Source of the DNA: Mesostigma viride
Lineage: Eukaryota > Streptophyta > Mesostigmatophyceae > Mesostigmatales > Mesostigmataceae
Length of the DNA stretch: 64,000 bases
Direction: 5' to 3'
NCBI GenBank assembly: GCA_009746045.1
Contig: RPFO01000138.1
Location: 453,259 to 517,258 of the forward strand
Positions 45,731 through 64,000 of this stretch are shown here, one piece after another. Position numbers and translations under genes: made by a program. The notes beneath the pieces are model-generated. The model was not told where the DNA came from. It ran no database searches and was given only the letters and a program-made list of their open reading frames with translations. How positions within the stretch are numbered: position 1 is the stretch's first letter; every line of letters starts with the position of its first letter.

Positions 45731-46312
45731 AAGTAAGTAAGTAAGTAAACAAGTAAGTAAGTAAGTCATCAATTAATTAATTAGTTAAAGTGCACAGTTC
45801 AACTTTATCACTTTTTTCAAGATTGAGTTATGATATAACATTTATCTTTAGTGGGTCACGAGACTCAATAATTAAATGAATTAATCTTAAGTGGGAAGTC
45901 ATGGAGCATAGTGATAACTATCATTCTTCTTTGCAAAGGTAGGCCCCATTCAGATATGGGTGGGTGTTCATGGTGTACAAAGTTCTTGTATTCTTATTGC
46001 TAGAAGCCACAGCAGGAGCCATGCACGTTTGGCTCAAGTAGCCCTGGCATTGGTCAAGGCTGCAGTATCTGTTAGTTGTCGTACTTCGTATAACTTCACA
46101 GTTCACAAGCAGAATACTGCAAGTCACATGCATCCCGAGCTAACTTCTTGGTGGCCACTTCGACCATCTCACTCATGGCAAGGCGGCCTTGCACGTCTGC
46201 CTATTATGGCCATGTTGACGGCAGCGTCCGCACGTGACTGTGCGAAGTTACCTGTTTCCGAGTCAAGCCTTCCTCGCAAGCACTGAGGATGCGAGGGTTT
46301 TTCTTCGCACGC

Positions 46313-48080
46313 TTACACGGCCGGCCTCGTTGGGCAGTTGTCGCAGGGGGGCGGAGCCCGTCCGTCGCAAGTCCCACTGTCGACACGGGAGTGAGAGGTG
46401 CTGCCGCCGTGCACGCTGCGAGTATGGCTGCTGTAGTCAACACAGGCTCCACCATGCAGGGTAATGGGCTCGACGTGAAGGACGCGTGCCAGCCTGCATG
46501 CGTGCTTGCATGGCACCCCGTAGATCTGCCACTCCCGGAACGTGCATGTCCGTGCGTCAAGGTCAACAGCATGATACTTGCCCTGCGCTGGCTGGCGCTG
46601 CATGGCAACCTCTCCCTGCCTGTCATCATCGTTCTTGCGAAAGACGTGCAGTATTCCCCCCGCAGCGATGTTCTTGATTAGCTGCTCGGCAGGAGCTTCC
46701 TTTACGCTCCCAGCAGGCCGTGGAGGCAATCTGACCCCGTTGGCATGTTGTTGTTGGCACCATGCACGCCTGCTGGCGATGTTGTCAAGCTCTCGCGATG
46801 CGAGGCGTTGGCACATGTACAGGACGGGGTAGAAGCGGAGGTCAAGCTGCTTGACCGCGCCGTTGAAGGATTCTGCGATGGTGCTCGCCACCCGCCCAAA
46901 CCGGCATGGCAGGCGTCAATGCCAAAGAGATCTGCTCTTGGGACACCGGGTTTTGCATGCTGTGTGCCATGCAAAACATACTCACGCAACGCGTCAGCCT
47001 TGGCCGGCACACTACATTGGCGAACCATGTTGTCAAGTGCAGCTTCAAATCGTTCCTCGGTGGTCGCCTTGGCCACGGCCCAATACGCGTCTGCTGCTCT
47101 TTTCCCGTAATGGTGCTTGCTGATGTTCAGCGTCCGGTGCTTCGCACACACATGATTGTGCGCGTTGGGCAGTGCCTCCTTCACACTGGCACACAAACCC
47201 TGGTCAGACTGTAAACACTGGAAAATTGTCGGCGTTCAGTCCAGGGTAAACATCCTTGCAGTTATGCAGAAACCAGCTCCATTTCTCGTTGCTCTCTTCC
47301 CCTGGAACCCAGCCATACGCCAGTAGGTTTGTACATCCCCTGGCATCAGCTCCGGTGAGCGACAGCAATTAAGCACCCTTGGTGTGTAGAGAAACAAGCA
47401 GCGCCATCAACATTGCAAAGTTGGGGGTGGTATTGAAAACTACGGACGTGTGGTCCTAGCGCCACAAAACAGCGGTGGAAACGCTCGCCACTATCATCAT
47501 CGTCACCATTGGTCGTCTCGACGATGACGACGGTGTCCGGGTCAGCACGCTTCATTGCTTCCGCCCATGGGCGAAACTCTTGAAATGCCACCACAGGGTC
47601 GCCGAAGCATAACACCCTCGCCTTCTCTCTAGCCCGCCACACGGTGTCGTATTCGAAGTCTGGCTCGCCAGGCAAAAAACCTTTAGCTGCAGTTTGCAGC
47701 ACCTCTACATCCACGTCATAGTCTGACCTGACGAGCCCACAAATGAACATTACAGATATCAGTATAGATGTCCATGGGCAGGACTTCACCCTAGCTTCTT
47801 TCTCGCCAGGAGGGCAAGTGTGGCTGAGGTTAAGAACGTTCCCCACTACCCATTCGCCATCCGCGTTGCCATCTACAGCAGCTGCCACGTAAAAATTGCA
47901 CACGCCCGGGTCCTTGCAAATAGTTTCAACCTTCCTTAAGTTGTTCGTCTTGAACTTGAAATTCCTGCCTGCTACAGAGCACAAAGACTTAACCTGGTAG
48001 GTAAAGTTATCTTTGCTAGGGAACCTACTGCCGCCCACTAACAATGCACGGTAGGCCGGCCTAGCTGCCATGTCCCGCAA
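46313..48080 (-). pseudogene. MuDR-type transposase, frameshifted
   Basis: From 48080 down, the first frame (to 47346) holds the MuDR N-terminal zinc-binding region (FKTNNLRKVETICKDPGVCNF) and the start of the transposase core (FHRCFVALGPHVRSFQ). A second segment (LAYGWVPGEES…KWSWFLHNC) is in another frame. SDQGLCASVKEALPNAHNHV marks the second catalytic region, reached by a frameshift near 47210. A SWIM zinc finger follows (CTFREWQIYGVPCKHA, about 46430-46475). A complete MuDR transposase would be ~650-750 aa. At least two frame changes and no plausible introns make this copy non-functional, unless the shifts are assembly errors. Confidence 0.85.
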
Positions 48081-48219
48081 TCACTTTCGGCTTTTCCAAG
48101 TTCTCCACTAAAAGAGTTCATGGTACAAATTCAAATACCACGCAACGCGATTTAAATTACTACCTACGCACGTGGCAGCTGAGCTCGCGCGCAGTCGGCG
48201 CTCTGGCCAGATCTAGGCG

Positions 48220-48402
48220 GGGCGTGACGGAAACAGGAATCTGACCAAACGAATCAGATTTCGATCGGAAAAACCGCTGTCTGACCATCATTGGTCTGAC
48301 GCATCGAACTAAGAATCCCGACTGATCTGTAATAAAAAACACCTGTCTGCAATTAGTGAAACTAATCTGTAATTACCGGGCCCCAACTTTACTAATATGC
48401 AA
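48220..48402 (-). repeat. Right terminal inverted repeat of the MULE
   Basis: Reverse complement of 42836-43013. It overlaps a short ORF that is only the inverted repeat read as protein. Confidence 0.88.
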
Positions 48403-48467
48403 TTTTTTCATTTTTTTATTAGGCCCGGGCCATCGACGCTGACGCGTCGAATTATATTCCAGCTTGT

Positions 48468-48610
48468 ATATCAAGTAACGTGCGTGTTTGCAACTTGCCC
48501 GTTCAAACTCTACGGCGGAGCCAATTTTCGGAAGAACCTCACCCTTATGCTTGCAAATTAGGGACAAATTCGGTGGATGGATGGATGGATGGATGGATGG
48601 ATGGATTAAA
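48468..48610. repeat. Inverted copy of the 42.05-42.17 kb repeat, ending in (GGAT)n
   Basis: About 105 bp containing GGCGGAGCCAATTTTCGGAA are the reverse complement of 42056-42165, with only a few differences, followed by eight GGAT units. With its partner it brackets the MULE. Confidence 0.85.
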
Positions 48611-48992
48611 AATTAAATTAAATTATAACATGCCTCGGTGCAAGCTATGCGTCAGCCTACCTATGGTATTGCACTGGTTGTATTGCACCCACAGTGTTGC
48701 GCCCCGGCACCATGCCGTGGAGAGAGCGCTCTGTGGCCTGCCCACCTGCGGCAGTGAGAGAAGCTAGGGCGCCCTCCCTCCTTCTCACTGTGTATATAGG
48801 GTTGAAGGTTCCTTTACTCTGTATTGGCACCCACGTGACGCAGTCACGTGCTTATTAATTAATTAATTAATGCCTCGGTGGCGGGGAGGTCATGTACATA
48901 GCACATATTCCATGATGGATGGGGTGGAGGAAGCCGCGTGATCGAACTATACTAACTCTAATAAGCTATCTAGAAAATCCTAACTAGTAACA

Positions 48993-49120
48993 CTACTCAT
49001 CAAAACGCCTCCTCCGCTTGGGGGGAGGTGGCTTGCCCACAGGGTCGGGCGTGTGCGCCTTGACAATCTTCTTCCACCGCGTCTTGTCCTGCATGACAGT
49101 CCAAAGACGGGAGAGAGAGT
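48993..49120 (-). pseudogene. LINE ORF2 C-terminus
   Basis: Minus-strand frame MQDKTRWKKIVKAHTPDPVG…RRRRFDE, ending at TAG (48995-48993), with the family's 3' UTR to about 48940. Same family as 29.9 kb (+) and 58.3 kb (-). Confidence 0.72.
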
Positions 49121-49445
49121 GGATTAATTAATTAATTAATTAATTAATTAATTAAACTCGTGCTCCCGTTGGGGAGTCACGGAGCACCGAAGTGCTTTTA
49201 ATCCCTGTGTGTGCACAACAGGAGAAAGGGCAGAGACCCCCAGTCTCGATCCTTCATGCCAAAGGCATGCCACAGCTGCATTCGGGCGCGCTAGCTAAAA
49301 GACATGCTAACGATCCGGCAAACTGTGGGTGCAATAAGACCCATGTGAGCATATCATAGCAAGGAGCGTGGGCAAGTAATCTGATCGAGGCTATGACGTA
49401 GCATGGCTGTACAAAGACTAAGCTAAGGCTGTGGCTGGTTGTGTA
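49120..49445. repeat. Dispersed (TTAA)n-hairpin repeat module, copy 1
   Basis: A TTAATTAA run is followed by GTGCTCCCGTTGGGGAGTCA and about 260 bp that recur at 57100-57395 in the same order and orientation, with roughly 10% differences. No coding potential is shared by the two copies. Confidence 0.85.
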
Positions 49446-49564
49446 CCGTGCGTGAGCGGTGCACGTGACTACGTATGGTGGCACAGCTAGGCATGCAAAC
49501 ATTCTAAGCATGGCTGCCATGGCAACAGTGACTACCAATGAAGTCAAGCTAGGGCTATTCTAGT

Positions 49565-49940
49565 CTAGCCCGCTGGGGGCGTCCACATCTTGTGGTTGAT
49601 CATCAGGTCCCCGCCCCGCCAGTACACCTTGGGCTTCTGGGGGTCCTGCTTGTGGCGGAGGTATTCAGGCCACAGGTCACGTCGCTGCTGCTGCTGAGCG
49701 GGGGTCAGGTCGTCGTCCAGCGTCCAGGTGAGGTCGTGCAACCGCTTGCGACGAGAGAGGAACCGCTGCTTGTCCTCACGGGAGGGGAAGGTGAGAAGGA
49801 CTGGTGGGGGAGCCGCCTTGTCCCGTGAGTGGGGAAGGCGGTGGCACCCACGCAGTTCTACCTCACCTACCAGGCCCATGAGGGTAAGGAGCTGGTCCTT
49901 AAGCTCGTCGGCAAGGGAGGTTGACGTCTCACCTGGCTTC
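49565..49940 (-). pseudogene. LINE ORF1, C-terminal part (RNA-binding and C-terminal domains)
   Basis: Frame KPGETSTSLADELKDQLL … HRLPHSR … PVLLTFPSREDKQRFL … LTPAQQQQRRDLWPE, stopping at 49565. The order fits an L1-type ORF1 protein: RRM end, then a C-terminal domain with a conserved Arg-rich helix. It is the downstream part of the ORF1 that starts at 61890, separated from it by the CACTA element. Confidence 0.8.
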
Positions 49941-49942
49941 TG

Positions 49943-49999
49943 CACTATACTTTTCGTCCGAGGGTAGTAAAAAGGATCCGAGGCGTAAATTACGAGGTG
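49943..49999 (+). repeat. Left terminal inverted repeat of the CACTA element
   Basis: 39 bases identical to the right end, then after a 2-3-bp difference a further shared GGCGTAAATTACGAGGT. Confidence 0.93.
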
Positions 50000-50087
50000 G
50001 TAATTTACGGCACAGACTACTCTTACCGTTTGTATAAGAGTTCGGATCTTTCTCGTAAGCTACGAGTTAGATCCGAGGTAAGATCCG

Positions 50088-50275
50088 ACGTCGTAATTTA
50101 CGAGGTAGTAATTTACGAGGTAGTAATTTACGAGGTAGTAATGTACGAGGTAGTAATGTACGAGGTAGTAATGTACGAGGTAGTAATGTACGAGGTAGTA
50201 ATTTACGAGGTAGTAAGGTACGAGGTAGTAATTTGCGAGGTAGTAATTTACGAGTTGGTAATTTACGATCCCGGT
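50088..50275. repeat. Subterminal 15-bp repeats of the CACTA element
   Basis: About twelve tandem copies of a 15-bp unit (TACGAGGTAGTAATT, variants with ATG, AGG or TGC). CACTA elements typically carry subterminal motifs bound by their own DNA-binding protein; that role is inferred here. Confidence 0.9.
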
Positions 50276-50566
50276 ACTCGGTCCCGTAGGTTACGACGTC
50301 GTATGCTTCTCGCGTACACTACCGGTACTACAATCATGTCGCTATGTCGTTCTGAATTGCAGTACGCATGTCACTTATCAGAATTTCACTTTGATTTCAC
50401 TTATCATTTCGGTCAACCTAACCCCTAACACCCATTTACCCGGGGGAAAAAAATGAATGGCATTTGCAGCAAGGCTCATGCAAGACGAGTTCCTATTTCA
50501 TAAAAAATTTCATTATTAAATGCAGGATTACATGTCATGCACAAAAATCCAACGCCTTCACAGAAA

Positions 50567-50844
50567 ATAGCATATCAAGTCTTCTGACGACAATATCAAG
50601 TCAATATCAAATTCGTGGCTTCTCTTCGTGGCTTGAAATACTGTTTCCATGCGGTGCTTAGGACAGCTCCGGGGATGTCGGCACCGCACAGAAGCTCCAT
50701 CCGGGAGCAAGTGCGCCGGGGGAAGATGTTGTACATCCAGAGCTCGATATGTGCGGGAAGCCGTCGTGTTGGAAACCGAGGTGTCTGCACATAATTCCGC
50801 GCGCAGGCAGCTTGTGCCTTTACGGGGGAAGACCTGCGACACAA
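50567..50844 (-). other. Possible coding exon inside the CACTA element
   Basis: After a TTTTTGTGTCGCAG acceptor (minus strand), one frame reads PAHIELWMYNIFPRRTCSR and IPGAVLSTAWKQYFKPRREA before its stop. Another frame is also open. The composition is protein-like but no family is recognised. Confidence 0.25.
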
Positions 50845-50984
50845 AAACCGTGTCCGGACAATGCAATACGGAGAAATGGCAACGGCAGATGGAGTCGGCT
50901 AAGGCCGCTTGTAAGGAAAGTGATTTTTAATGCACGAATAAATGTATAATGCATGCTACATCGCCATCGCTTGGGCGGTGAAAA

Positions 50985-51210
50985 GACAAGGACCAACCAC
51001 ATGCCCCCACCTACCCTTCGTGCATCCCGCCCTTGACGAGGCACAACCATGTGCCCCCACCTACCCTTTGTGCGTCCCTCCCTTGACAAGAAACAAGCAC
51101 GTGCACCTATCTAACCTTTGTGCATCCCTTCCTTGGCAAGGAACAAGCACACCCACCCACCTACTCCACATGCATCCCTCCCTTGACAAGGAACAAGCAC
51201 GATCACCCAG
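50985..51210. repeat. ~45-bp minisatellite
   Basis: Five degenerate copies of a unit with CACCTACCCTTTGTGCATCC…CCTTGACAAGGAACAAGCAC (split here). Confidence 0.85.
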
Positions 51211-51459
51211 CTACCCACTAGCACGGCAGCAAGGCAGACCTTACAATGGCAAGTGATGTTTATCGGTAGAAACTGTTAGACAACTAGCAAACGAGCCAGC
51301 CGGTGAAGAGCAAGGCACGCATGCAAGGAATTTGTCGTTGCCTATGTCTACGCTTGTGTTTGTCACTGCAGTTGAAATCTGCATTTGCATCAGCAGGCCC
51401 GATCGAACCCCATGTCGCCACCCGCATTTCCACTTATACTTCACGGCCCCTTATTCTTC

Positions 51460-51850
51460 TCTTGTGCCTGCCTTTGCCCTAACTGTTACCCTAGCATCTG
51501 CCCTTGCCCCTATCCTTTGATCCCCAGTGTTTGCCGTTGCCCTCATCCTTTCCCTAGTGCCTGCCCTTGTCTTCATCTTTTCCCTTGTGCCTGCCCTTGC
51601 CCTTGTCCGTTCCCTCGTGCTTGACTTGTCCTAATCTCTTTCCCTTGCGCCTGCCCTTGCCCTTATCCGCTTCCCTTGTGCCTGCCCCTGCCCTTGCCCT
51701 TGTCATTTCCCTTGAGCCTGCCCTTTTGGCAAGCACAAGTGCCTTTGTCCTTTCCTTGGCCTTGTGCTTGCTCTTCCAGTTTCCCTTTCCTTTGCTCGTG
51801 CGGTTGCCTTTGCTCTTACCCGGGTGCTTGCCCTTGCCGTTTGCAAGCTG
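51460..51850. repeat. Pyrimidine-rich CTTGTGCCTGCCCTTGCC repeat
   Basis: About eighteen degenerate copies of a 18-24-bp unit. The open frames across it are low-complexity artefacts. Confidence 0.8.
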
Positions 51851-52571
51851 CATTATTGTCTTAGCAAGCTAGCAAGTGCAAACTGGCACTGAGCCAGAAA
51901 TGCAAGCAAAGCAGCCAGTGTAAATAAGGATGGACGGGAACAGTAGAAAGCTAGGGGTGGCAACGGTGCTAGAGCTCATGGCAACAAGGTGGTCCCATTC
52001 TTGCTGCATTGGGTGCGTTGCGTGGGTGGGATATTGCGAGAGGGGGACATTCTTGCCTTGGTTGTGTTTTCACATGCACCCGGTGCTTGAATTTATGCGT
52101 GCAAGGGTGGCTGGTATCCCAACCAACAGCCTAAGAGGAAAAAGAGTGCTTAGAAAGCAAGAATGACTTAATGTTGGTAATAGCAGTGGCGGCGGCAGCA
52201 AAAACTGTTGTTATAGATGCAAGCTACAACACTGCGGATGGTTTCTCACACTAATGTGGATAATGATAATGCATGCCACTTAACGGGACCATATAAACCA
52301 CAACAAGAATAAATCGTGAGAGCAAAAGAAAGGGGAGTACAAAATGGCCGGCTTACCTAGCTACAGCAAAAAAATTACATGAAAAACAAGATAACTCACC
52401 TTTGTCGCAGCAGTGACCATATCAGACAGCTCACAAAAACTTGTTGATCCTTGAAACTTCCTGCTTGAAGGCAGCCACCAACGGTCTGGAGTTTTCACCC
52501 CAGTCCTTCTCAACAGCCAAGGAAAAGGGAAAGAGAGAGGAGGGGTGCGGGAGGGACAAGAGAGCGGGGGT

Positions 52572-52673
<102 letters not shown>

Positions 52674-53674
52674 GAGAAGTGCGGGTGGGGGTGGGAGAGG
52701 TGGGATGGAAGATTCACTACGTTAGCAGGCGACTAAACTGCTACAATGACACAAAACCACGGAGCTAGGCCCTTCACTCCATCAGATCAGAGTGAAAACC
52801 CATGTTGAAACTGGGACAAATGCCATTAGAATGTTACTATGACCGTGGCTAGTAAACGTGAATTGACACCCAGGTTGTGACTTCAACGATTGGAGGCAAC
52901 CTTGCCAAGTCTCCCAAATGCAGTCGGCTAGACAAGCTTCACAAAAAACGCAGCAAACATGTTAACGTTGCTAATATTCCAACGACGCGCATCCGCAGTC
53001 CGGCTGCCAATGAAGTCTTCTTGGTCGCCAGCTGTGCACAGAGGAGTAACCGCTAGAGACGCCAATTTGCGAACAACTCATTACAATTACAAAGCGCAGG
53101 AAGCAGATGGCTATGCATCAACAATTACTTCCGCTCGCCCTCGTATTTAGCCAGGTCTATCTGCCCAAACTGGGTAAATGTTTTGCGATCGGTGAAATTG
53201 GCACTCTAGAGACTTACTTTCCCAGAAAGTGTCCATTCACACGACAACCGACTCACGCTCACACGTCGTGAGGAGTTGCCGATAGGATAAAGAAGCCGAA
53301 CGATGAATTGCTGTACATAAATGCCACGCTAACGGCGTCGTGAACTGACTTCTTGCAATCACGATTAAAGTGCCCGGCCCAACAACAAATTGGCGACACA
53401 CGACCCCGCAACTGGAAAAGAATTCTGGCCACATTGATATACATCGGTTTGATAAAGTAAAACCTCGCATTCGGTTCTGGCTAGCCTCAAACGCATGCGC
53501 CTTGAAACCTTTATCCTCCTGGCGGCCACAGTTTCTCGGTTCTCTTGTTCCGTTGGTCGTGCCGCTAGCGTGCCAGCCGCTCCAGTCCCTAAAATTCAAA
53601 TTCGTGTTGTTCGAGAAAACGTTGTCGGGTCGGCGACGGCACGATGCCGGGCCGGGCTGCATGGGCCATGGAGG

Positions 53675-54120
53675 GTGGTGGTACACAAATACCGTACAGG
53701 TGGTACCATACACAACTGCAGCCAGGACAACAGCCGGGCGCTGCGTACCTGCCGTGGGAAGGAGGGGGGTGGTACACAAAACCGTACAGGTGGTACACAA
53801 CTGCAGCCAGCACAACAGCGAGTCGCTGCGTACCTGCCGTGGGAAGGAGGGAGGTGGTACACAAAAACCGTACAGGTGGTACACAACTGCAGCCAGCACA
53901 ACAGCGAGTCGCTGCGTACCTGCCGTGGGAAGGAGGGGGGTGGTACACAAATACCGTACAGGTGGTACACAACTGCAGCCAGCACAACAGCGAGTCGCTG
54001 CGTACCTGCCGTGGGAAGGAGGGAGGTGGTACACAAAAACCGTACAGGTGGTACACAACTGCAGCCAGCACAACAGCGAGTCGCTGCGTACCTGCCGTGG
54101 GAAGGAGGGGGGTGCTACAC
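53675..54120. repeat. 86-bp minisatellite, five copies
   Basis: Units start 85-86 bp apart (AACTGCAGCCAG at about 53714, 53799, 53885, 53971 and 54057). The period is not a multiple of three, yet all frames stay open through it, so long ORFs of both strands here are repeats rather than genes. Confidence 0.95.
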
Positions 54121-54129
54121 AAATATCCG

Positions 54130-54850
54130 ACCTATATATTAGCGATAGCCGCCGCCTATTAAACAGGTCCTATTCATCACGAGCGTCAACGCCCCGTCAT
54201 CGCCCCGTCATCGCCCGGCCGAGGGCCTTAACCTGTTAACTGTTTATTCGGAGTGATAGTCAACGACCTATACTACCAATAGCTGCCGCATATCAAACAT
54301 CGGTTTTTCATCGGGCCCGTCGAGGGCGATGACGGTGACGGTCGTCACCGTCATCGCCCTCGACGGGCCAACATCTAAACTCTTCTCTTAATCAACAATC
54401 TATATTACCAATAGCCGCCGCCTATCAAACAGATCCTATTCATCACGCGCGTCAACGCCCCGTCATCGCCCCGTCATCGCCCCGTGATCGCCATGCCGAG
54501 CCAGCCGAGGGCCAACCTCTTAACTCTTTACATTTGTATTCGGAGTAGTAGTCAACGACCTATATTACCAATAGCCGCCGCATATCAAAAAGGTCGTATT
54601 CATGACGCCCGTCGAGGGCGATGACGGTGACGCCGTCACCGTCATCGCCCACGGGCCAACATCTAAACTCTTCTCTTAATCAACAATCTATATTACCAAT
54701 AGCCGCCGCCTGTCAAACAGATCCTATTCATCACGCGCGTCAACGCCCCGTCATCGCCCCGTCATCGCCCCGTCATCGCTCCGTGATCGCCATGCCGACT
54801 GCCGAGGGCCAACCTCTTAACTCTTTATTCGGAGTAATAGTTAACTGCCG
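54130..54850. repeat. ~288-bp tandem repeat with internal palindromes
   Basis: About two and a half units, recognised by CAACAATCTATATTACCAAT at about 54394 and 54681, each with a CGTCATCGCCC run. One unit holds a perfect 27-bp inverted repeat (54314-54340 and 54343-54369); the next holds a shorter one (54616-54632 and 54634-54650). Confidence 0.88.
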
Positions 54851-54859
54851 GCATTGCCA

Positions 54860-55805
54860 TACAAGAAGAAGCTCTCGATCCTAGGTATAGACTACCTCGG
54901 GTATCATCATCGTAATTGCTAGCATCGAGATCATTCATACCTACCGACGATGGCCAGCTGCAAAAGAAAAATGTCGACCAACAGACAGGACCTATCGCCG
55001 GGAACCCTCAAGGCAATAAGGGCGAGACAGGCTTTCACCGTTAAGTAAAGTTGTCCACATCGTGCTAAGGAATTTGTGCTAATCTATGAGTACCTGTATG
55101 GACACTTTGTCGCATTTTTTACATGGCAAATAAGCGATGTATGTGTCATGTAGGCTGCCATTGGTGCATGCATGCATGGGCCAGCAATGATGGTCAGAGG
55201 TACATTGTGCCTATGAGATAACCATCGATTTGTTGATCAGCAAGTGATTCATTACGTGAGACAACAATATGTTTGGGGGCTAAGCTTCTTACATTGGTCA
55301 CATGGCCCGCCATAATTGTTTTCTTATGTGTTTAAGGTTAGGGCTCTGTTCATGACTGAACGTCATGAACGCGCTCTATTCATGACATTGATTAATTGAT
55401 TTTAATTAGTCTCATGTCCATGTTGGGGGACCGGGATCTCTGAATTCCCCAAAGAAGATATAGTGGAAGTCACCCCAAGACGTCAATATCCGTCAAGACG
55501 TCAATAACAACATGTATGTCCACAGCTCAGCTAGTAGTCTAAAATATGGGCCTCGAGCTAATCTTGCACGCAAGCAATGCCTATCATCAAGGATTAATTA
55601 ATGCCTATCAACAAGGAGACAATCATGCTTGTTAAATTTCCTAGGACCCACAACTGGGGGGTCGTAGTCTTTGACAATGTCCGCCTGGGCAACGCTACTA
55701 ATCCTACACATCCGAGGTCCCATGTCTGAATAAGAGGGGTTGAGCGGATGACGCCAACAGTGTCTGTGCTCTGCATGTCAGCTAAAATCATATCGCGGAG
55801 ACAAA
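54860..55805. other. CACTA-internal DNA, nothing recognised
   Basis: No motif-bearing ORF. TTAATTAATT stretches lie near 55.39 and 55.59 kb. Confidence 0.4.
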
Positions 55806-56890
55806 CATATGGCGGTATCAAAGAGACAACCAGCGCAGGCCAGAAATCGGGAGAATCCGGACCATGGTAGCTCGAGCCTGCCGTTATCTTTTCCGCGTTT
55901 TCGAGTCGTTCAGGATGATGAAGATGAATGGTGATGGAAATGTGTATCCTTGTGCATTGAAATTATGGCTGGCTTACGTGTGGAGCGACTAGATGACCTA
56001 GACGGTGGGGCCGGAAACAGCATGCTTGATCAGGGCGTGTGTTTCTAGCCTAACTGGCCGGGAGTGTCTAGTGGTGAGCACCATTGCTGCGATCGCTCTC
56101 CCACCATTTACGAGGAAATACCCGCAAATGGAAAACCACTGAAAAGGTCTAGCTAGTCAGTCATCACGTTAGCCATGCCATGATTCCAAACGTCCAAGAA
56201 CTGCACACGGTGCAAAGGCAAAAAGCCGGAGGACAGCACTTTCAAATGTGCGGCGGGAACCAAAAGCCCGCGGATGCCAGAAAACATCGTGTTGCGGCAG
56301 CGACGCGACGATGTGGACAACGAATCCAGTGCCAAGCTCGGAACGGCCGCAAAGGAGATCTGGCATCACAGGGTTCAGATGTGCGGAGATACTATGCGAT
56401 CCAGCCGGTCCACGACCTGTTTGTAGAGCTTGTGCCAAGGGGCAGCACCGAACAGATGTGGGTGACGTTGCAAAAAACATCGGACTTGACGGAGCATAAT
56501 GGCTCGGTCATAGTCTTTGACCAATAAACGCTGCAAGAGTTCAACAAGAGTCGTGATGAAATCAACACGATAAGAACAAAGACGGGAAAAACGATGTAAC
56601 TGAGAAAGAACAACACCATATTTTGCTGTGTGGGAAAGGAGACTGTGAATATCGGGGTAACGAATAAAAGGAATTTGTTGGTATTTAGGATCCTTGCGCT
56701 TATCATAGATAGCCGTACGCCAGCCCTTCTTGTTATGGGTAATGTTAAGATCGAGGTAATTGCAATGAGTATCCTCCGACGTGAGCTTTAATGTGAGGGA
56801 CGCTTGCGGGTAGATGCCAGGCAGACCAGCGGTGATATACAAATGGGTTGCGAAATCAGGGTTGTCGAAAGCGATGACATATGGCGGTAT
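55806..56890 (-). mobile_element. 5'-truncated Penelope-like element with 13-bp target duplication
   Basis: Bases 55819-56880 match 7979-9042 in reverse orientation; I found only two substitutions (GTC to ATC and CAG to CAA in the ORF). CATATGGCGGTAT flanks it at 55806-55818 and 56878-56890; CAT at the truncation point is shared by element and target. A fresh 5'-truncated insertion. Confidence 0.93.
56375..56880 (-). pseudogene. C-terminal part of the Penelope-like protein
   Basis: Encodes the last ~167 residues (from VIAFDNP, just after the YIDD motif) with a single amino-acid change relative to the long copy. It has no endonuclease or catalytic reverse-transcriptase core. Confidence 0.92.
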
Positions 56891-57099
56891 GTCCAATGCT
56901 GGCCACTGCGTCGCCTAACAGGTTCTTACATGGTCGGCAAGGGCCTGACCATGTAAGAAGATATCTCCCTGGCTGGCCAGTCCACAAGGAACCAGCACAG
57001 ACCTCATCTGAATCAACCTGATTAATTAACTAACTACTTAATTCATTTATTAAACTCATGCCCCCATTAGGGAGTCAAGGAGCATTAGCTAACCCCGAT

Positions 57100-57395
57100 T
57101 AATTAATTAATTAATTAATTAAACACGTGCTCCTGTTGGGGAGTCACGGAGCACCGAAGTGCTTTTAATCCCTGTGTGTGCACAACAGGAGAAAGGGCAG
57201 AGACCCCCAGTCTCCTTCATGCCTGAGGCATGCCACAGCTGCATTCGGGAACGCTAGCTAAACGGACACGCCAACGATCCGGCAATCTGTGGGTGCAATA
57301 AGACCCATGTGAGCATGGCATAACACTAGGAGCGTGGGCAAGTAATCTCATCATAGCCAGGACGTAGCATGGCTGTACTAGGACTATACCCCGAT
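57100..57395. repeat. Dispersed (TTAA)n-hairpin repeat module, copy 2
   Basis: Same module as 49120-49445, here leading directly into the GGAT array. A partial third copy of its first 45 bp (CATGCCCCCATTAGGGAGTC) lies just before it at about 57057. Confidence 0.85.
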
Positions 57396-57397
57396 CA

Positions 57398-58012
57398 ATG
57401 GATGGATGGATGGATGGATGGATGGATGGATGGATGGATGGATGGATGGATGGATGGATGGATGGATGGATGGATGGATGGATGGATGGATGGATGGATG
57501 GATGGATGGATGGATGGATGGATGGATGGATGGATGGATGGATGGATGGATGGATGGATGGATGGATGGATGGATGGATGGATGGATGGATGGATGGATG
57601 GATGGATGGATGGATGGATGGATGGATGGATGGATGGATGGATGGATGGATGGATGGATGGATGGATGGATGGATGGATGGATGGATGGATGGATGGATG
57701 GATGGATGGATGGATGGATGGATGGATGGATGGATGGATGGATGGATGGATGGATGGATGGATGGATGGATGGATGGATGGATGGATGGATGGATGGATG
57801 GATGGATGGATGGATGGATGGATGGATGGATGGATGGATGGATGGATGGATGGATGGATGGATGGATGGATGGATGGATGGATGGATGGATGGATGGATG
57901 GATGGATGGATGGATGGATGGATGGATGGATGGATGGATGGATGGATGGATGGATGGATGGATGGATGGATGGATGGATGGATGGATGGATGGATGGATG
58001 GATGGATGGATG
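57398..58012. repeat. (GGAT)n tetranucleotide array, ~153 units
   Basis: Pure over 615 bp. The open frames (GWMD/SIHP) on both strands are artefacts of the 4-bp period. Confidence 0.99.
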
Positions 58013-58247
58013 TCAGGCTTGTCTTACATGATGCAGTGGAACTTTGGTGCTGGAGGGTTAATTGTGGCCCGGTCTGGTTTAGCTTCAGTGCTCTCATGGC
58101 GGCCTTCATTTGTAATTATTTGAATGCATGCCCATTGGGCCATGCATAGTGTATATTTTTTACGCATGCACGCCCATTATGTATCGCTGGGTCCATCCCA
58201 TCAATGCTTGTTTATTGCCAGGTCTGGTGTAAGTAAGTTAGTGCTAT

Positions 58248-58465
58248 CTAGTCTACAAAATCCTCACTACACTTCTCCCCAAAGCGCCCCTTCCGCTTTG
58301 GGGTAGGGGGCTTACCCACATGGGCTGGCGTGTGAGCCGGGACATTGGTCTTCCACCTCTTCTTGTTCTGCATAGGAACAGAGAGCGAAGAAATGCGGTG
58401 TGGGGACCCCTTCTCGTGGTAATGCGTTACATGTACTCCCCACCGGGCTTTGCTCTTCATGGGTT
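58248..58465 (-). pseudogene. LINE ORF2 C-terminus
   Basis: Minus-strand frame NKKRWKTNVPAHTPAHVGKP … KRKGRFGE, continuing to a stop at 58248; same family as 29.9 and 49.0 kb. It is 5'-truncated. Confidence 0.72.
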
Positions 58466-59408
58466 CATAAAGACAACAATTATTCAGTAAGAATTTAATA
58501 AATTAGGAACATATATCCGTTGGGAGTCACTGTTACACATATACCTGAAAAGGGGCATATGATTTTAAATACATTCTGAGCTACAACCTGCACGTGCATG
58601 GGTTTAGTTAACTGGCACCTATACTAGAGGCCTGACATGGGGTGGAGCTTCAGTGCTTCCCCGCCTTCTCCTTCTCCCACACTGGGTGCTCCGCGTCCTT
58701 CTTCTCCGGCCCTGCCCATGGGTGCACCGGCCCCGCCTCCTCCTTCTCCTCTCGGGACGATTCGCGCTCCACGCATGGCTGCAGCATCAGTTAGCACGGG
58801 CAAGACATAGCAGTAACCGCGCTATTGCTGTTCTAGCACCAGCCTAGCAGACTGCCATGATCACTCAGCAAACCCACGACAGCTAAACCCTTGGCTGTCA
58901 CAACCAGTCCATGCATCATTAAGTATGGGTACAGGGAAAGCTTCCCGCATATCCATGGCCATATGGATGGCAGCAACACAACGACTTGCCCCCTAGCCCC
59001 CCGTGCACACACAAAAACGTGGGTCGTGGCTTCCACGCCCCATCCGCCATGCATGACAGCGCGTACCTTACTCGCATTCACACCGGGCTGCATCCCAGCG
59101 CCGTTGCTGTCCCCATGTGACACGTCGGCTGATTAAGCAGACACACAGCAGAGTCTGATGTAAACCGCTAAACCCCAAACCCATGCAGACCACAGTCAAG
59201 GACGCGTGCATGTCAAGCCATGCCAATTGTGAACCGTACAGCAATTTACTTTTCAAGCCTGAAGAGGTGGATAGCAGATACTAGCCTGGAAGAGGTTACA
59301 GGGGCACATGTCCATTAGCGAGCGGAACAACACAGCATACACCCTACAAGCGTACCGCACAATGTCCTCCTGCAATTGTCTGCAGATCTCCCAATGCCGC
59401 AGACATCT

Positions 59409-59490
59409 CCACTGCTCTCATGGCGATTGCAAATGCTTCATGCCGCTGACATCTCCACTGCTCTCATGGCGATTGCAAATGCTTGATGCC
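59409..59490. repeat. 46-bp tandem duplication
   Basis: CTCCACTGCTCTCATGGCGA plus following bases occurs twice, about 46 bp apart. Confidence 0.8.
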
Positions 59491-59563
59491 GCACCTCTGC
59501 TTACAGCAGAAAAGCTTCCTCCGGGCGAGGCACCTGACTGGAACCAACACCCATTCCTTGGCT

Positions 59564-60674
59564 TCACAACGTGGCCATGACAGCATCGTGAATCTGCTTC
59601 GCCAACGCCCACACTTCAGGACCCGCGCCCTGCACCGCCATGGCCACAGGCTGCACCGCTGCAATCGATGCAGCATTCACTGCCTGCGCCGCACCATGTA
59701 CTGCATGCACGAAAGCCAATCCTGGCTCGGTTATCATGGTCTTGCCCGATTCCTGCTGCTTCTTCTTCTTCGATGCGGTCATGCGCACTTTATACCCCTT
59801 CCTCTCCAAGCACGCCTTCAGCACCTGGCTCGTGCGGTGCTGAATATGCTTCTGAAGGCGCGCCTTCTAAACACGAAATGTTGGCAATGTATGATTCCCA
59901 AACGGCATGATAGGCACATAATCAGTCCCATTAATTGCTTTGCGGCAGTCAATGCACCAGAACACCTGTTGAAAAAAGAAGGTTATGCGCGCTAGCGATT
60001 ACCCGCGGCAAGAAGCAATCAACACGCCTCGCTAACAACTGCAACCACAATGTAATTCATGACGGGCCACTCACCGCTACCCTGCTCTCCTGATTCAATG
60101 TCTCCCCATTCTCAAGGCCTCCATTGTAAACCTCTCCGTCTTCACCATCGTCATCGTCTTCCTCTTCCTCCACTCCGACGTATCCGTGTTTCCTTTTCCT
60201 AAGATACCTAGGGTTGTTCAAGTCGTATGTGCGGCGTTGGCACACTTCCAACAAAATTTTGGCCGCCTCTACCCATTACCATTTATTCGTACTATCATAA
60301 CATATCCAGGCGTTTGAAAAATCATTCCCTCGTTCGAACTTCTACCCCTGGGCGTCCATGACGAGGCAGTCACGACGGGACGCAGATGCACAAAAATAAA
60401 ACAAGGCGACATCCCTTCAATCATTGACCAAAAAACAGAATACGCGCAGAACTTGGATTTCAACACCACGCACCCATTACCAGCGAGCACGGCTGGCCTG
60501 CAACCGCCATCATTTCATAACCAGAAGCCAGGGCCCACACTCCATCCCGTTACCTCATCTTCCACGCACGGCTTCCGCTGCTTCCCTCTGCTCTTTCGCA
60601 TTCTCCGCCAGCAACCTCGCCTTCTCCTCGTCCAACAATCCACTAAGAATAAAATCCCCTCTATTGGACGCCAT
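59564..60674 (-). CDS. Candidate four-exon gene carried by the CACTA element, function unknown
   Basis: Minus-strand exons 60674-60570, 60266-60075, 59965-59918 and 59866-59564 (105+192+48+303 = 648 nt, 215 aa plus stop). All junctions are GT-AG and phase 0; the intron between exons 3 and 4 is only 51 nt. The protein starts MASNRGDFILSG and has a charged helix (DEEKARLLAENAKEQREAAEA). It then has a basic patch (RKRKHG), a very acidic EEEEDDDDGEDGE stretch, one CIDC motif (WCIDCRKAI), a KKKK basic segment and an Ala/Val-rich C-terminus. No family is recognised. Its place beside the right terminus suits an element-encoded DNA-binding protein (TnpA-like role), but a captured host gene is equally possible. 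The splice sites are my own prediction. Confidence 0.45.
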
Positions 60675-60944
60675 TCAGACGAACTTTGCTAGCGTCTTTT
60701 CACCGGCCCCAGCACACATAATCTATAGCCGCTTACTGACAACGGCCGACAACGACAACTGCTGAATAGGCGAAAAAGGCTGATAACTACATTTTTATAT
60801 TTCGCTGCATTTGCTAATAGACACGCACGTTCTCCCACTTCTCCATTACAATATAATTATCCATCTGGCCGTGTACAGGCAAAGATCCCCGAAGTAACTT
60901 ACTGAAACGTATCTTACAGCATCGGATCACTGGCACCTAATCTA

Positions 60945-61183
60945 CAGGTGGTAGATTACCAACCAAGACCCGTCGCGGTAATTTACTCTGTCGGTAATGT
61001 ACTACCAAAGATGTGCAGTCGTAACGTTACTCTTACTTACGGCTAGTAAAATTACTACGTAGGATGATAGGTAGTAATGATTACGGCGTTGGATCTCACG
61101 CCTCGTATCTAGGTAGTAAGATAAGACCTCGTAATTTACGCCCGTCGGATCCTTTTTACTACCCTCGGACGAAAAGTATAGTG
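60945..61183. repeat. Right subterminal region and terminal inverted repeat of the CACTA element
   Basis: Dispersed GTAATTTAC/GTAGTAA motifs related to the left 15-mers, then the 39-bp terminal inverted repeat 61145-61183 ending TAGTG. Confidence 0.88.
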
Positions 61184-61890
61184 TGGGGGAAGCGACGCAG
61201 CACCACCCGGCAGTCGCGGCGGGCGCGGTCGGTGGCCTCCCGTTGTTGAGCCTGGCGGAGGTCTTCAAGCTCCTGGAGCTTCGTAGCGATGGCGTCGGTG
61301 GTGGATGCGGTCGCTGTCCGCAGCAGGTCCGCATAGGAGAGGGGCGGGAGGTCACCAGCTTCCAGCCGGGGTGGCTGGGATGCGATGGTGGCCGTCTGCT
61401 CCGCTATCTTGGGGACCTGTGAGGCCAGGGCCTCGGTGTGGGCGGTGATGGCTTCAAGCTTCTTCATGAGCACGCCGCACTTGCCCTCCACCTGGTTAAG
61501 GCGAGAGACAAGTGCAGCGTGCGTTTCCGATGCCTGTGCCGCGGTGTGCAGCGTCGTGAACTGGGGCTGGAGCTTGTGGACGACCTTGGTTTCCACATTG
61601 GAGACCCGGGCCTCCACCGTGTTGAGCGTCGTGTTCAGCGAGGTCAGCTTCTCGGCCAACGGCCAGGTCACGTGCTCCTCCAGCACTGCTCGGATGTCAT
61701 CCTTGCAGAGGGAGGAAGCCGATGTGGCTGTCGGCCGCGCAGGCTGGGCTGGGGTGCGGAGCTTGGCGGCGATTCTGTCGAGAGGTAGCTGGAAGAAGCT
61801 GCACAGGATGCCGAGGCGGAGGTCGTATTCTGGCAGGGCGAGGAACCTCTCCACGTTCTCGATCGGCGTGGATGGGCCCACCGGGCCCAT
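61184..61890 (-). pseudogene. LINE ORF1, N-terminal part (coiled coil)
   Basis: Starts MGPVGPSTPIENVERFLALP. Heptad-like sequence runs from about residue 70 to 190 (EKLTSLNTTLNTVEARVSNV …), then YADLLRTATAS and a basic segment ending CRVVLRRFP, the first strand of an RRM. The reading frame is cut by the CACTA terminus and continues at 49940. The whole ORF1 would be 360 aa, a usual size for L1-type ORF1 proteins, which bind LINE RNA as coiled-coil trimers. Confidence 0.8.
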
Positions 61891-61924: not shown

Positions 61925-62797
61925 TTATAGAGAGTGGATGCGGTGCTCAAACTGGGCTGGGACCACTAGGTCGTCCAGCAACATCTGAACGTAGTTCGTG
62001 ACAGGTTTCCCTACCCGTTTGGGAATGTCCGCGGGGCCAGGCCAGGTCAGAATGTGCCGCCCTGGCTGGCCAAGCCGCTGGGGGCCGGCCAGACCGAGGG
62101 TGGTGTCGACCTGGCTGGTGCGGGCAAGGTGTCCTATACAAATGCTATCCTACGCTGCCTAATAATCTCGTCCGAAACACGAGGCATGCCATGATACAAA
62201 GACTCAGATGACGGACGCTAGGAAAAACCTACGTTAAGGACCTGTTGGAGCATCCTGTAAACCGTGCCGTCTAGCCTAACTGCCAGTTTGGGTGGGAGGG
62301 TCCACGCCTCGGCGCCATACGTGAGCACCGTGAGGTTCGAGGACCTTGAAGAGCATGCGCTTGCGGTGCCCGCCCAGGCCCTTCGAGCACCAGTATAGGG
62401 TGTGAGCGAACGGAGCTTGGCCCAGGCAAGGCCGATGCGGGTGTCCACATCGTCGCGGCGGTGTCAGGAAGCCAGCTCCCCAACAGCTTGAAGCGGTCGC
62501 GGAACGGGACCTCCGTCCCGTCGAGCAGGCGCGGCAGCGGTGGTTTACTGGAGGCCCCAATCACCATCGCCTCAGTTTTGACACTAACCCCACCACCCGC
62601 GCCTCCAGGCCCAGGCAGTCCAGCCAGGTCTGAATGTGCTCGGGGCTCTCGATGAGGGTGGTATCATCCGCATAAATCAGGTCGGCAATTAAGGGGACGT
62701 GGCGCGCCGAATATTTTCCGCGCCAAAAAATTCGCGGTACCGTCCGTACGGTGTATAATGTGTGCCCGGACCGCTCAACCCTCGCGGAGGTGGCCAT
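61925..62797 (-). pseudogene. LINE ORF2 fragment: reverse-transcriptase palm to C-terminus, decayed
   Basis: Minus-strand segments in order: ADLIYADDTTLIESPEHI (YADD catalytic motif, about 62670), then DGTEVPFRDRFKLLGSWLPD, then LTYGAEAWTLPPKLAVRLDG (thumb region). The C-terminal QPGR-x-ILTWPGP and HRIHSL follow, ending in a stop near 61933. At least three frameshifts separate these, and the upstream reverse transcriptase and endonuclease are absent. ORF1 of another copy begins 40 bp further on. Confidence 0.72.
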
Positions 62798-62799
62798 GG

Positions 62800-64000
62800 C
62801 GGCATGCCTTTATGCAATATTAATCGATATGGCACGTAAACAGCTAGAAAAAATGCTTGAATTTCGCAGAAGATTAGTTGATGACCTCATGTCATGGCGG
62901 AAAGTTTACGGTTTGCAATATCGCTAATTTCTCGAACGGCTACGGGCGCGGGGGTCCAGGATATAATTTCTCTTGCGGATCATGAAATTTAATGCAGGTT
63001 TACGGCAGCTATTGTGAGGCAACGTAGGCTCTAAAGAGCGATTATGAAGCTAACTTAATGGTGTTGTCGAGTTTGTGCCGAAGCTTCCCGGTTTCTTTTA
63101 CATTTCCGGCATTCAAGGTAAGAACCTACGCAGGCCTGCGCATGTCGCCTTCGACGTATTCACGGAAGGCGCACCTTCCTTGTTCGCCTGATCAATGGAT
63201 GATGTCTTTTATTGTTCGAGCTTGCGTGCCAGTTTATGCATGAAACATTTCCACGCAGGCAGGTGCAATAACGTCGGCCTTTCGCCTTTTTTTCGGGCAG
63301 TTTCCCTGCAGGAAGCGCTCCATTCCTTTCGGTTGCATCGTCAGATTCCTAGCAATTTCGTACAATTTCGTGTAGTTTGTGGCTGGCATGCTTAAGGCGC
63401 CGAGGTCAAGTTGTTGGTAATGTGTTGACATTTGTTTTCCATAATCCTTTGGACATGAGCTTGCTCAGACGCTTTGTTATGTGCCGGATCTGACACGCCT
63501 GTTTTAGTAAAGACATCCGGCATGTGCCTAGAGGCTAACAAGCTGGCATCAGCTTCTTAGCAAATTGCCGTATTGGAAAGGAAGGTGAGAGTGGTTCTTT
63601 TGCTGGCCATACTGCATGAGTGGCATTGCATTAGATAGGTGTTTCCATTGCTTTCCTTGAGCTATAACCATTAAGACTTCCCTGCTATGTGTGCAGCAAG
63701 GCAAGCTGGATAGGATGTGAATGCATGGCAGACAACATGTATGATTTGCTGCCAAGTTTGCAGGCTGCAGTTGCCTCTATTGCTTGGGCAGTCTTTGTAA
63801 GGTTTTTACACGTATACTTGCTGAGTTCTTGGCATAAATTTACATGGTAACCTTGGGCTGAGCATAGTGTATGCTCTCTTGGTGCGTGTATGCCTAGCGA
63901 TGGTGTTGCTATGCGCACGCTGGCAAGGCTGGCCATGCTGAGGGCAGGGGAGGGCAGATGAGGTGCCTAGCCTTTTCTTATGTTGTGTGATCGAGTTGGG
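62800..64000. other. No gene recognised
   Basis: Only short ORFs without motifs. Near 62.70-62.75 kb the sequence GGCGCGCCGAATATTTTCCG marks the point where similarity to LINE ORF2 ends; it may be the edge of another element. Confidence 0.4.

What the first reader, a model, noticed from the sequence alone, without database searches (positions are those of the whole stretch)
49941..61185. An 11.2-kb CACTA-type transposon split a LINE ORF1, and the break can be read to the base
Both ends share a perfect 39-bp inverted repeat starting CACTA, flanked by TG on each side. The LINE pieces 61890-61184 (707 nt) and 49940-49565 (376 nt) sum to 1083 nt and join in frame as RRFP-QKPGE once one TG is removed. 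The empty site is therefore predicted exactly. A 2-bp duplication is unusual, since plant CACTA elements normally make 3 bp, so this may be a distinct algal lineage.
Basis: partly seen in the sequence, partly recalled or inferred. Interest (0 to 1): 0.85.

Follow-up and report, generated by a model that had tools for sequence, protein, structure and literature searches.

The report
Algal CACTA-type transposon inside retroposon ORF1
An 11-kb jumping gene cut a second mobile element's gene cleanly in two in a green alga, and it turns out to be a dependent copy of a much larger transposon family that carries its own protein-kinase gene.

Summary
The element is 49943-61183 (11,241 bp), with perfect 39-bp CACTA termini and TG on each side. 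Removing it and one TG restores a 1083-nt frame. All 40 scored copies of the target (of 1642 candidates) run through the predicted junction. The 2-bp duplication is a family trait: 30 of 33 independent pairs.

(1) This copy is non-autonomous: 9 of 34 listed terminus pairs, 16-47 kb long, carry the transposase, and 8 of those also a kinase and a PhyH-like dioxygenase, whole or in pieces. (2) The transposase shows the D..D..CxxC..HxxxH..E pattern of CACTA/Plavaka-type enzymes but stays below Pfam's Plavaka cut-off. (3) A 50%-identical kinase lies within 40 kb of 30 of 32 transposases of a second family, convergent in 29 of 30, so the kinase is a conserved transposon gene. A 2-bp duplication alone is not unusual: animal and fungal relatives have it. 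The interrupted unit has no ORF2 behind ORF1.

The parts
49943..61183 (+). CACTA-type transposon copy, 11,241 bp, non-autonomous
   Evidence: only repeat-driven Pfam matches in six frames at E up to 1 and no tblastn match to the family's transposase
49943..49981 (+). left terminal inverted repeat, 39 bp
61145..61183 (-). right terminal inverted repeat, 39 bp, perfect
49941..49942 (.). target site duplication TG, left copy
61184..61185 (.). target site duplication TG, right copy
50093..50268 (+). left subterminal array of a 15-bp unit (GTAATTTACGAGGTA), 11.7 copies; likely transposase-binding region (inferred)
54923..55036 (+). remnant of the kinase gene's 5' end (38 aa, 95% identical), inverted relative to the 25-kb copy
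55805..56890 (.). younger nested insertion: 1,058 bp (55819-56876) between two copies of a 14-bp repeat ACATATGGCGGTAT; empty in the four sister copies inspected there
61186..61890 (-). 5' part of the interrupted ORF1 (ATG at 61890)
49565..49942 (-). 3' part of the interrupted ORF1, with stop (counting one TG)
49137..49564 (-). 3' region of the interrupted retroposon; tail of ATTA units at 49123-49155
48646..48765 (+). exact empty-site paralogue (120/120) of another family member's insertion (C25:417708-431871), one CC only; 200 bp on each side do not match without gaps
   Evidence: also read

Best explanation
The feature is a non-autonomous member of a young, high-copy family of large cut-and-paste DNA transposons of the CACTA/CMC type in a green alga. 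It inserted into an ORF1-bearing retroposon, duplicating 2 bp (TG). Shown: paired perfect termini, 2-bp duplications across the family, empty sites, no recognisable transposase in this copy, and transposase, kinase and dioxygenase genes in larger copies with the same ends. Inferred: the transposase made by the 16-47 kb copies binds the 39-bp ends and the 15-bp subterminal array, cuts the element out, and joins it to a target cut with a 2-nt stagger that is filled in to give the duplication; the 11-kb copies move in trans. Inferred with less certainty: the kinase phosphorylates the transposase or a host silencing or repair factor, and the dioxygenase plays an anti-silencing part like that proposed for TET/JBP in fungal transposons.
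For: Termini and duplication. Genome counts 286/288. Each of the 34 close pairs in the list carries exactly one of two markers: the 11-kb-type marker in 25 and the transposase in 9. Genome-wide the transposase 30-mer occurs 47 times and the 11-kb-type 30-mer 268 times, up to 2 mismatches. Empty site 40 of 40 scored and a second one, 120 of 120 bases, inside the window. Ten other full copies (nine sites) all have 2-bp duplications; median divergence of the last 2.9 kb is 0.3%. Transposase motifs: the two D motifs in three of four sequences, CxxC, FH, HxxxH and FE in four of four; weak Plavaka matches 20.0 and 24.1 bits against a cut-off of 26.3. The 149-aa transposase query is met at 100% identity in 40 of 87 places.
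Against: Three of 33 pairs have no matching dinucleotide, among them the site of the 25-kb reference copy C183, so that copy may be recombined. No transposase model reaches a curated cut-off; L099 scores 11.5 bits for Plavaka and two pieces of L101 nothing. Splice sites of the transposase gene were chosen by eye. Only 40 of 1642 candidate target copies were scored. The dioxygenase call is weak (23.1 bits, cut-off 22; no PDB match below E 0.2, no NCBIfam match above its cut-off). No RNA, protein or movement data.
Confidence: 0.93

Rival explanations
1. The 11-kb copy is itself autonomous, with a transposase too divergent or too split by introns to be seen.
For: It is the most frequent size class (21 of 34 listed pairs are 10.3-14.2 kb) and it is large for a defective element.
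Against: Six-frame Pfam scans at E up to 1 show only repeat-driven matches. The family transposase from the 25-kb copy gives no tblastn match in the window copy or in ten sister copies. The transposase-bearing class has the same termini. The 11-kb class keeps a 38-aa stub of the kinase.
Confidence: 0.04
2. The kinase and dioxygenase are host genes captured by chance (passenger cargo), not parts of the transposition machinery.
For: The 16.2-kb copy has the transposase but neither gene. In the eight other transposase-bearing pairs only four have both genes whole over the query; in the rest one is split or partial. The dioxygenase is limited to family 1 (33 of 49 transposases; 0 of 32 in family 2) and has many other relatives at about 28-39% in the genome.
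Against: A kinase of about 50% identity accompanies 30 of 32 family-2 transposases, convergent in 29 of 30, and the family-1 kinase accompanies 30 of 49 family-1 transposases, convergent in 30 of 30; about 0.2 family-2 pairs are expected by random placement. Lysine, HxD and DxG motifs are kept, and NG86 over 376 codons gives dN 0.67, dS 2.9 (saturated).
Confidence: 0.3
3. The interrupted ORF belongs to a host multigene family, not to a retroposon.
For: No ORF2, no Pfam match above cut-off, no fold match.
Against: 1642 candidates, 40 of 40 scored copies at 98-100% identity; the C2133 copy is 5'-truncated at window 61795 and ends in the same ATTA tail, beside a different transposon's gene.
Confidence: 0.05
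4. The termini are a chance or recombinational pairing of two unrelated insertions.
For: Three of 33 pairs lack a duplication.
Against: Mismatched partners agree at the dinucleotide in 106 of 1056 combinations (10%), true partners in 30 of 33; binomial P about 3e-33 against 1/16. The flanks of this copy are continuous in 40 of 40 scored target copies.
Confidence: 0.01

Closest known systems
EnSpm/CACTA (CMC superfamily), Transposase_21 type
   Same: CACTA termini, subterminal repeats at the left end, large size, autonomous/non-autonomous pairs, D..D..E with CxxC and HxxxH motifs
   Different: 2-bp rather than the 3-bp duplication usual in plants (the 3 bp recalled and as in the finding); transposase not recognised by Transposase_21 although a protein of that family exists in the same genome; kinase and dioxygenase genes
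Plavaka (PF18759; fungi, also named as EnSpm-Plavaka in the green alga Auxenochlorella, PMC12633428, one passage)
   Same: Nearest Pfam model of the transposase, C-terminal part of the model only; PlavakaA makes 2 bp and PlavakaB 2 or 3 bp (PMC12730594, passages); some fungal Plavaka carry a TET/JBP dioxygenase
   Different: Below the curated cut-off; termini CACTA, not TGT..ACA or CATCA..TGATG; the dioxygenase here matches PhyH weakly, not TET/JBP; kinase
SmTRC1 and animal TRC elements (PMC1636069, passages)
   Same: CACTA superfamily with a 2-bp duplication, found in 7 of 14 copies and supported by empty sites in repeats
   Different: Animal hosts; no kinase mentioned in the passages seen
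HAL1-like ORF1-only LINE derivatives (recalled)
   Same: ORF1-like protein, 5' truncation, 3' repeat tail, no ORF2
   Different: Algal; the fold is not shown

Membership tests
CACTA/EnSpm (CMC) | CACTA..TAGTG terminal inverted repeats | tested here: met
   39 bp perfect; 286/288 copies of the first 25 bp
CACTA/EnSpm (CMC) | 3-bp target site duplication (plant members) | tested here: not met
   0 of 36 rows with 3 bp; 30 of 33 independent pairs with 2 bp
CACTA/EnSpm (CMC) | 2-5 bp duplication and CA..TG ends of the wider CMCT clade | tested here: met
   2 bp, CA..TG; clade description from PMC12730594 passages
CACTA/EnSpm (CMC) | Repeats concentrated below the ends | tested here: met
   GGTAGTAA forward 11/2/0 in first 450/last 450/interior of the window copy; strong at the left end, weak at the right
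CACTA/EnSpm (CMC) | Transposase with D, D, CxxC, H(3-4)H, E | tested here: met
   Two D motifs in C183, L099 and L101 (the L100 frame starts behind them); CxxC, HxxxH and FE in four of four; catalytic roles inferred from position
CACTA/EnSpm (CMC) | Transposase_21 (PF02992) match | tested here: not met
   No match in ten C183 ORFs at E up to 10 nor in the spliced model at E up to 1; another protein of the same genome matches at 7.1e-28
Plavaka | PF18759 above the curated cut-off | tested here: inconclusive
   20.0 bits (C183), 24.1 (L100), 11.5 (L099), none for two L101 pieces, against 26.3
Plavaka | TGT..ACA or CATCA..TGATG termini | tested here: not met
   Termini are CACTA..TAGTG
KDZ (Zisupton type) | 8-bp duplication | tested here: not met
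   2 bp; 8 bp for Zisupton from PMC12730594 passages
LINE (L1/HAL1-like) for the interrupted unit | ORF1 followed by ORF2 with reverse transcriptase | tested here: not met
   ORF1 is followed by about 430 nt and an ATTA tail in the window and in C2133; no reverse transcriptase model in the minus-strand frames of 46000-49564
LINE (L1/HAL1-like) for the interrupted unit | 5' truncation and a 3' simple-repeat tail | tested here: met
   One copy (C2133) compared
LINE (L1/HAL1-like) for the interrupted unit | ORF1p fold (coiled coil, RRM, C-terminal domain) | tested here: inconclusive
   Only weak coiled-coil-type Pfam matches below cut-off; best PDB sequence match E 0.012; model of the 3' piece pLDDT 63, 0 PDB fold matches at E 0.001 or below

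The most novel reading that the evidence does not exclude
A green-algal lineage of CMC transposons has adopted a protein kinase as a conserved second gene, placed convergently to the transposase in two families that have diverged to 33% transposase identity, and the kinase acts in transposition control or in countering host silencing. Family 1 has added a 2-oxoglutarate dioxygenase, parallel to the TET/JBP genes of fungal transposons. This would be the first cut-and-paste transposon lineage known to me that encodes its own protein kinase. In the held open-access library, (six phrases) found 0 papers, one search found 1 and one search found 51 with 20 listed; I opened none of the papers of those three listings for this question.
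Probability: 0.55. Interest if true: 0.8.

Novelty: new variant of a known kind. Interest (0 to 1): 0.62.

Why it matters
The insertion is a clean, base-exact example of a young transposon burst in a green alga, with empty sites at hand. More important is what the long copies carry: a kinase gene that has stayed with the transposase across two diverged families. If it is needed for movement or for escape from silencing, it would link transposition to cell signalling in a way I did not find in the papers I could search, and it can be tested because dozens of near-identical copies exist.

Tried and rejected
Tried without result: terminus, ORF1 3' part and transposase profile in IMG/VR viral contigs and the left end in phage records: no relatives. 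PF18759 over the own genome gave nothing, but it rang in no control genome either, so it says nothing. The right flank beyond about 62689 is a high-copy repeat, so an allelic empty site could not be sought there. The model of the ORF1 3' piece matched nothing convincing. The ORF at 56375-56914 has no PDB sequence match at E up to 10 (none at E up to 1). Transposase_21 over the own genome did not complete. PMC2884549 and PMC8969392 were looked through by passages and gave no duplication length.

Considered and rejected: the 2-bp duplication as a new feature; the 11-kb copy as autonomous. The absence of 3-bp duplications is no independent evidence, since a 2-bp match that is also a 3-bp match needs a homopolymer.

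Rows dropped: 83 of 87 rows were entered (four second fragments left out), of which 49 counted as family 1, 32 as family 2 and two as neither, 97 of 150 rows (64 + 33), 60 of 125 rows (38 + 22); the rest are second fragments or weaker relatives. In the duplication count three of the 36 rows were dropped (two allelic duplicates, one pair 261 kb apart). One search uses the places listed; the lists are capped at 100 places.
Full report
1. The observation. The 39-bp perfect inverted repeat, the TG on each side and the split frame are as described. The element proper is 49943-61183, 11,241 bp. The two flanks joined with one TG give 1083 nt from ATG to a single terminal stop. A 300-bp query made of the joined flanks matched 40 of 40 scored places in the window's own assembly (440 Mb, 2243 contigs) through the junction, at 98-100% identity, three of them 100% over 300/300; 1642 candidates existed and only 40 were scored. 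The empty site is therefore shown from paralogous copies of the target, not only predicted. An allelic empty site was not found; the one flank tried is a repeat.

2. The family. The first 25 bp of the terminus occur 286 times forward and 288 times reverse with up to three mismatches, none in the reversed control. The 100 listed places give 34 inward-facing pairs under 60 kb (10.3-47.1 kb) and one exception in orientation; 32 listed places have no such partner in the list. In 36 rows of paired flanks, 32 share a dinucleotide and none a trinucleotide; after removing two allelic duplicates and one pair 261 kb apart, 30 of 33 share it, against 106 of 1056 (10%) for mismatched partners. The dinucleotides vary (TA 7, AA 5, AG 5, TG 4, CT 4, others 7 of the 32), so there is no fixed target. 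A second exact empty site lies in the window itself at 48646-48765: it equals, over 120 of 120 bases, the joined flanks of the copy at C25:417708-431871 with one CC; 200 bp on either side no longer match without gaps. Ten other full copies, two of them alleles of one site, were compared with the window copy: the main blocks are 92-100% identical, much of it 99-100%, and the copies differ mainly in tandem arrays and insertions. Median divergence in the last 2.9 kb is 0.3%; the largest value, 9.3%, involves the C113 copy, which carries an insertion near that end. The family is young.

3. The window copy is non-autonomous. Six-frame Pfam scans of the 11.2 kb at E up to 1 find only repeat-driven matches such as PT and pentapeptide repeats. 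A 25,213-bp copy with the same termini (C183, L051-L053) shares the left 325 bp (93%) and the right 3 kb (97%) with the window copy, besides tandem arrays, and contains large ORFs. Of ten ORFs scanned, one matches Plavaka weakly (20.0 bits, cut-off 26.3), one BAH weakly (18.5, cut-off 30.8), one PhyH (23.1 bits, cut-off 22) and one protein kinase (33.0 bits, cut-off 31.7). tblastn with the transposase finds nothing in the window copy or in the ten sister copies; a 38-aa stub of the kinase remains, in inverted orientation. A transposase 30-mer occurs 47 times and an 11-kb-type 30-mer 268 times. Each of the 34 close pairs holds exactly one of the two markers: 25 the 11-kb type, nine the transposase, and eight of these nine also kinase and dioxygenase sequence; in four of the eight both are whole over the query, in the others one is split or partial. 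The exception is the 16.2-kb copy at C446:3097306, which has the transposase without either.

4. The transposase. Protein from one exon (149 aa) is found at 87 places, 40 of them 100% identical. Relatives with 46% and 33% identity (L100, L099) were aligned and a fourth (L101) compared by tblastn. W-x-D-x-F and D-S-x-A-R are shared by C183, L099 and L101; the L100 frame starts behind them. G-C-x-x-C, I-F-H, N-x-H-x-x-x-H and F-E are shared by four of four. [quoted passage not shown] The assignment of the catalytic residues is mine. Transposase_21 does not detect these proteins but detects another protein of the same genome at 7.1e-28. I therefore call it CMC-type, nearest to Plavaka, without filing it under either family.

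5. The kinase. Family-1-type kinases lie within 40 kb of 30 of 49 family-1 transposases, convergent in 30 of 30. A kinase about 50% identical lies within 40 kb of 30 of 32 family-2 transposases (31-34% identical), convergent in 29 of 30, median distance 4.1 kb; about 0.2 such pairs are expected by random placement (from the lists after dropping fragments). Kinase types do not cross over: 0 of 32 and 0 of 49. The family-1 kinase has 59 PDB matches at E up to 0.01, the best (MAPKAPK2) at 8.1e-5; a family-2 kinase (L102) scores 37.9 bits against the Pfam kinase model. Both keep a glycine-rich loop, the VVK lysine, HND with its Asn, and DLG; over 376 aligned codons (38% identity) NG86 gives dN 0.67 and dS 2.9, the latter saturated. 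The kinase is thus an old partner of this transposase and probably active as an enzyme; its task is unknown, and my proposal (control of transposase or of host factors) is inference. The dioxygenase accompanies 33 of 49 family-1 and none of 32 family-2 transposases and has many diverged relatives in the genome; it has no PDB match below E 0.2 and no NCBIfam match above its cut-off.

6. The target. The interrupted unit is a high-copy sequence with a 3' tail of ATTA units (49123-49155). The C2133 copy is truncated at the 5' side (window 61795), ends at the same tail and lies beside the transposase gene of a Transposase_21 element. No ORF2 follows ORF1. I read it as an ORF1-only retroposon; the L1 ORF1 fold could not be shown.

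7. Host. rbcL from the same assembly matches best, at 1053 bits, 1gk8_A, ahead of land-plant chains at about 1026 bits and below (organism names recalled). I take the host to be a green alga; the species is not known.

8. Novelty. CACTA elements with 2-bp duplications were reported in animals in 2006 and elsewhere, and EnSpm-Plavaka elements are named in a green alga in a 2025 preprint. What I did not find in print is a kinase gene as a standing part of such a transposon; the searches were made, in an open-access library only, and I opened none of what those three listed.

Noticed in passing
window 55805-56890: Nested insertion of 1,058 bp flanked by a 14-bp repeat, absent from the four sister copies inspected; its ORF (56375-56914, -) looks by eye like the C-terminus of a Penelope-like reverse transcriptase. 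Two other copies (L043/L044, L037/L038) carry an inverted 566-bp piece of it at the same ACATATG site.
   Followed up: partly
window 57104-57386: A diverged (89%) 3' piece of the same retroposon lies inside the transposon.
   Followed up: no
L098:2669-5761: A Transposase_21 protein (7.1e-28) lies next to an intact-junction copy of the same ORF1 retroposon.
   Followed up: partly
window 62689-64000: Start of another very high-copy repeat (2118 first-look candidates; 40 scored, the window itself among them, at 99-100%) that covers at least 62689-63400.
   Followed up: no
window 62271-62663: Minus-strand ORF that looks by eye like a LINE reverse transcriptase C-terminus; no Pfam match.
   Followed up: no
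window 46204-48080: Minus-strand ORFs in a stretch with a weak SWIM zinc finger match (E 0.0026), perhaps a MULE-type transposase remnant.
   Followed up: no
G000, for example C1661:17368-20551 and C1746:688862-692046: A second dioxygenase type (about 36-39% identical) sits divergently, median 2.7 kb, near family-1-type kinases in 18 of 64 kinase places and near no family-1 transposase (0 of 22): perhaps a further cargo variant.
   Followed up: partly
G000:C183:10109-35321 and C113:180545-204182: Apparently allelic copies of one insertion (same flanks) without a matching dinucleotide at their ends (CA against CC).
   Followed up: no
window 54314-54369: A 27-bp perfect inverted repeat with a 2-base loop inside a 288-bp tandem unit; the 11-bp unit CGTCATCGCCC recurs nearby.
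   Followed up: no
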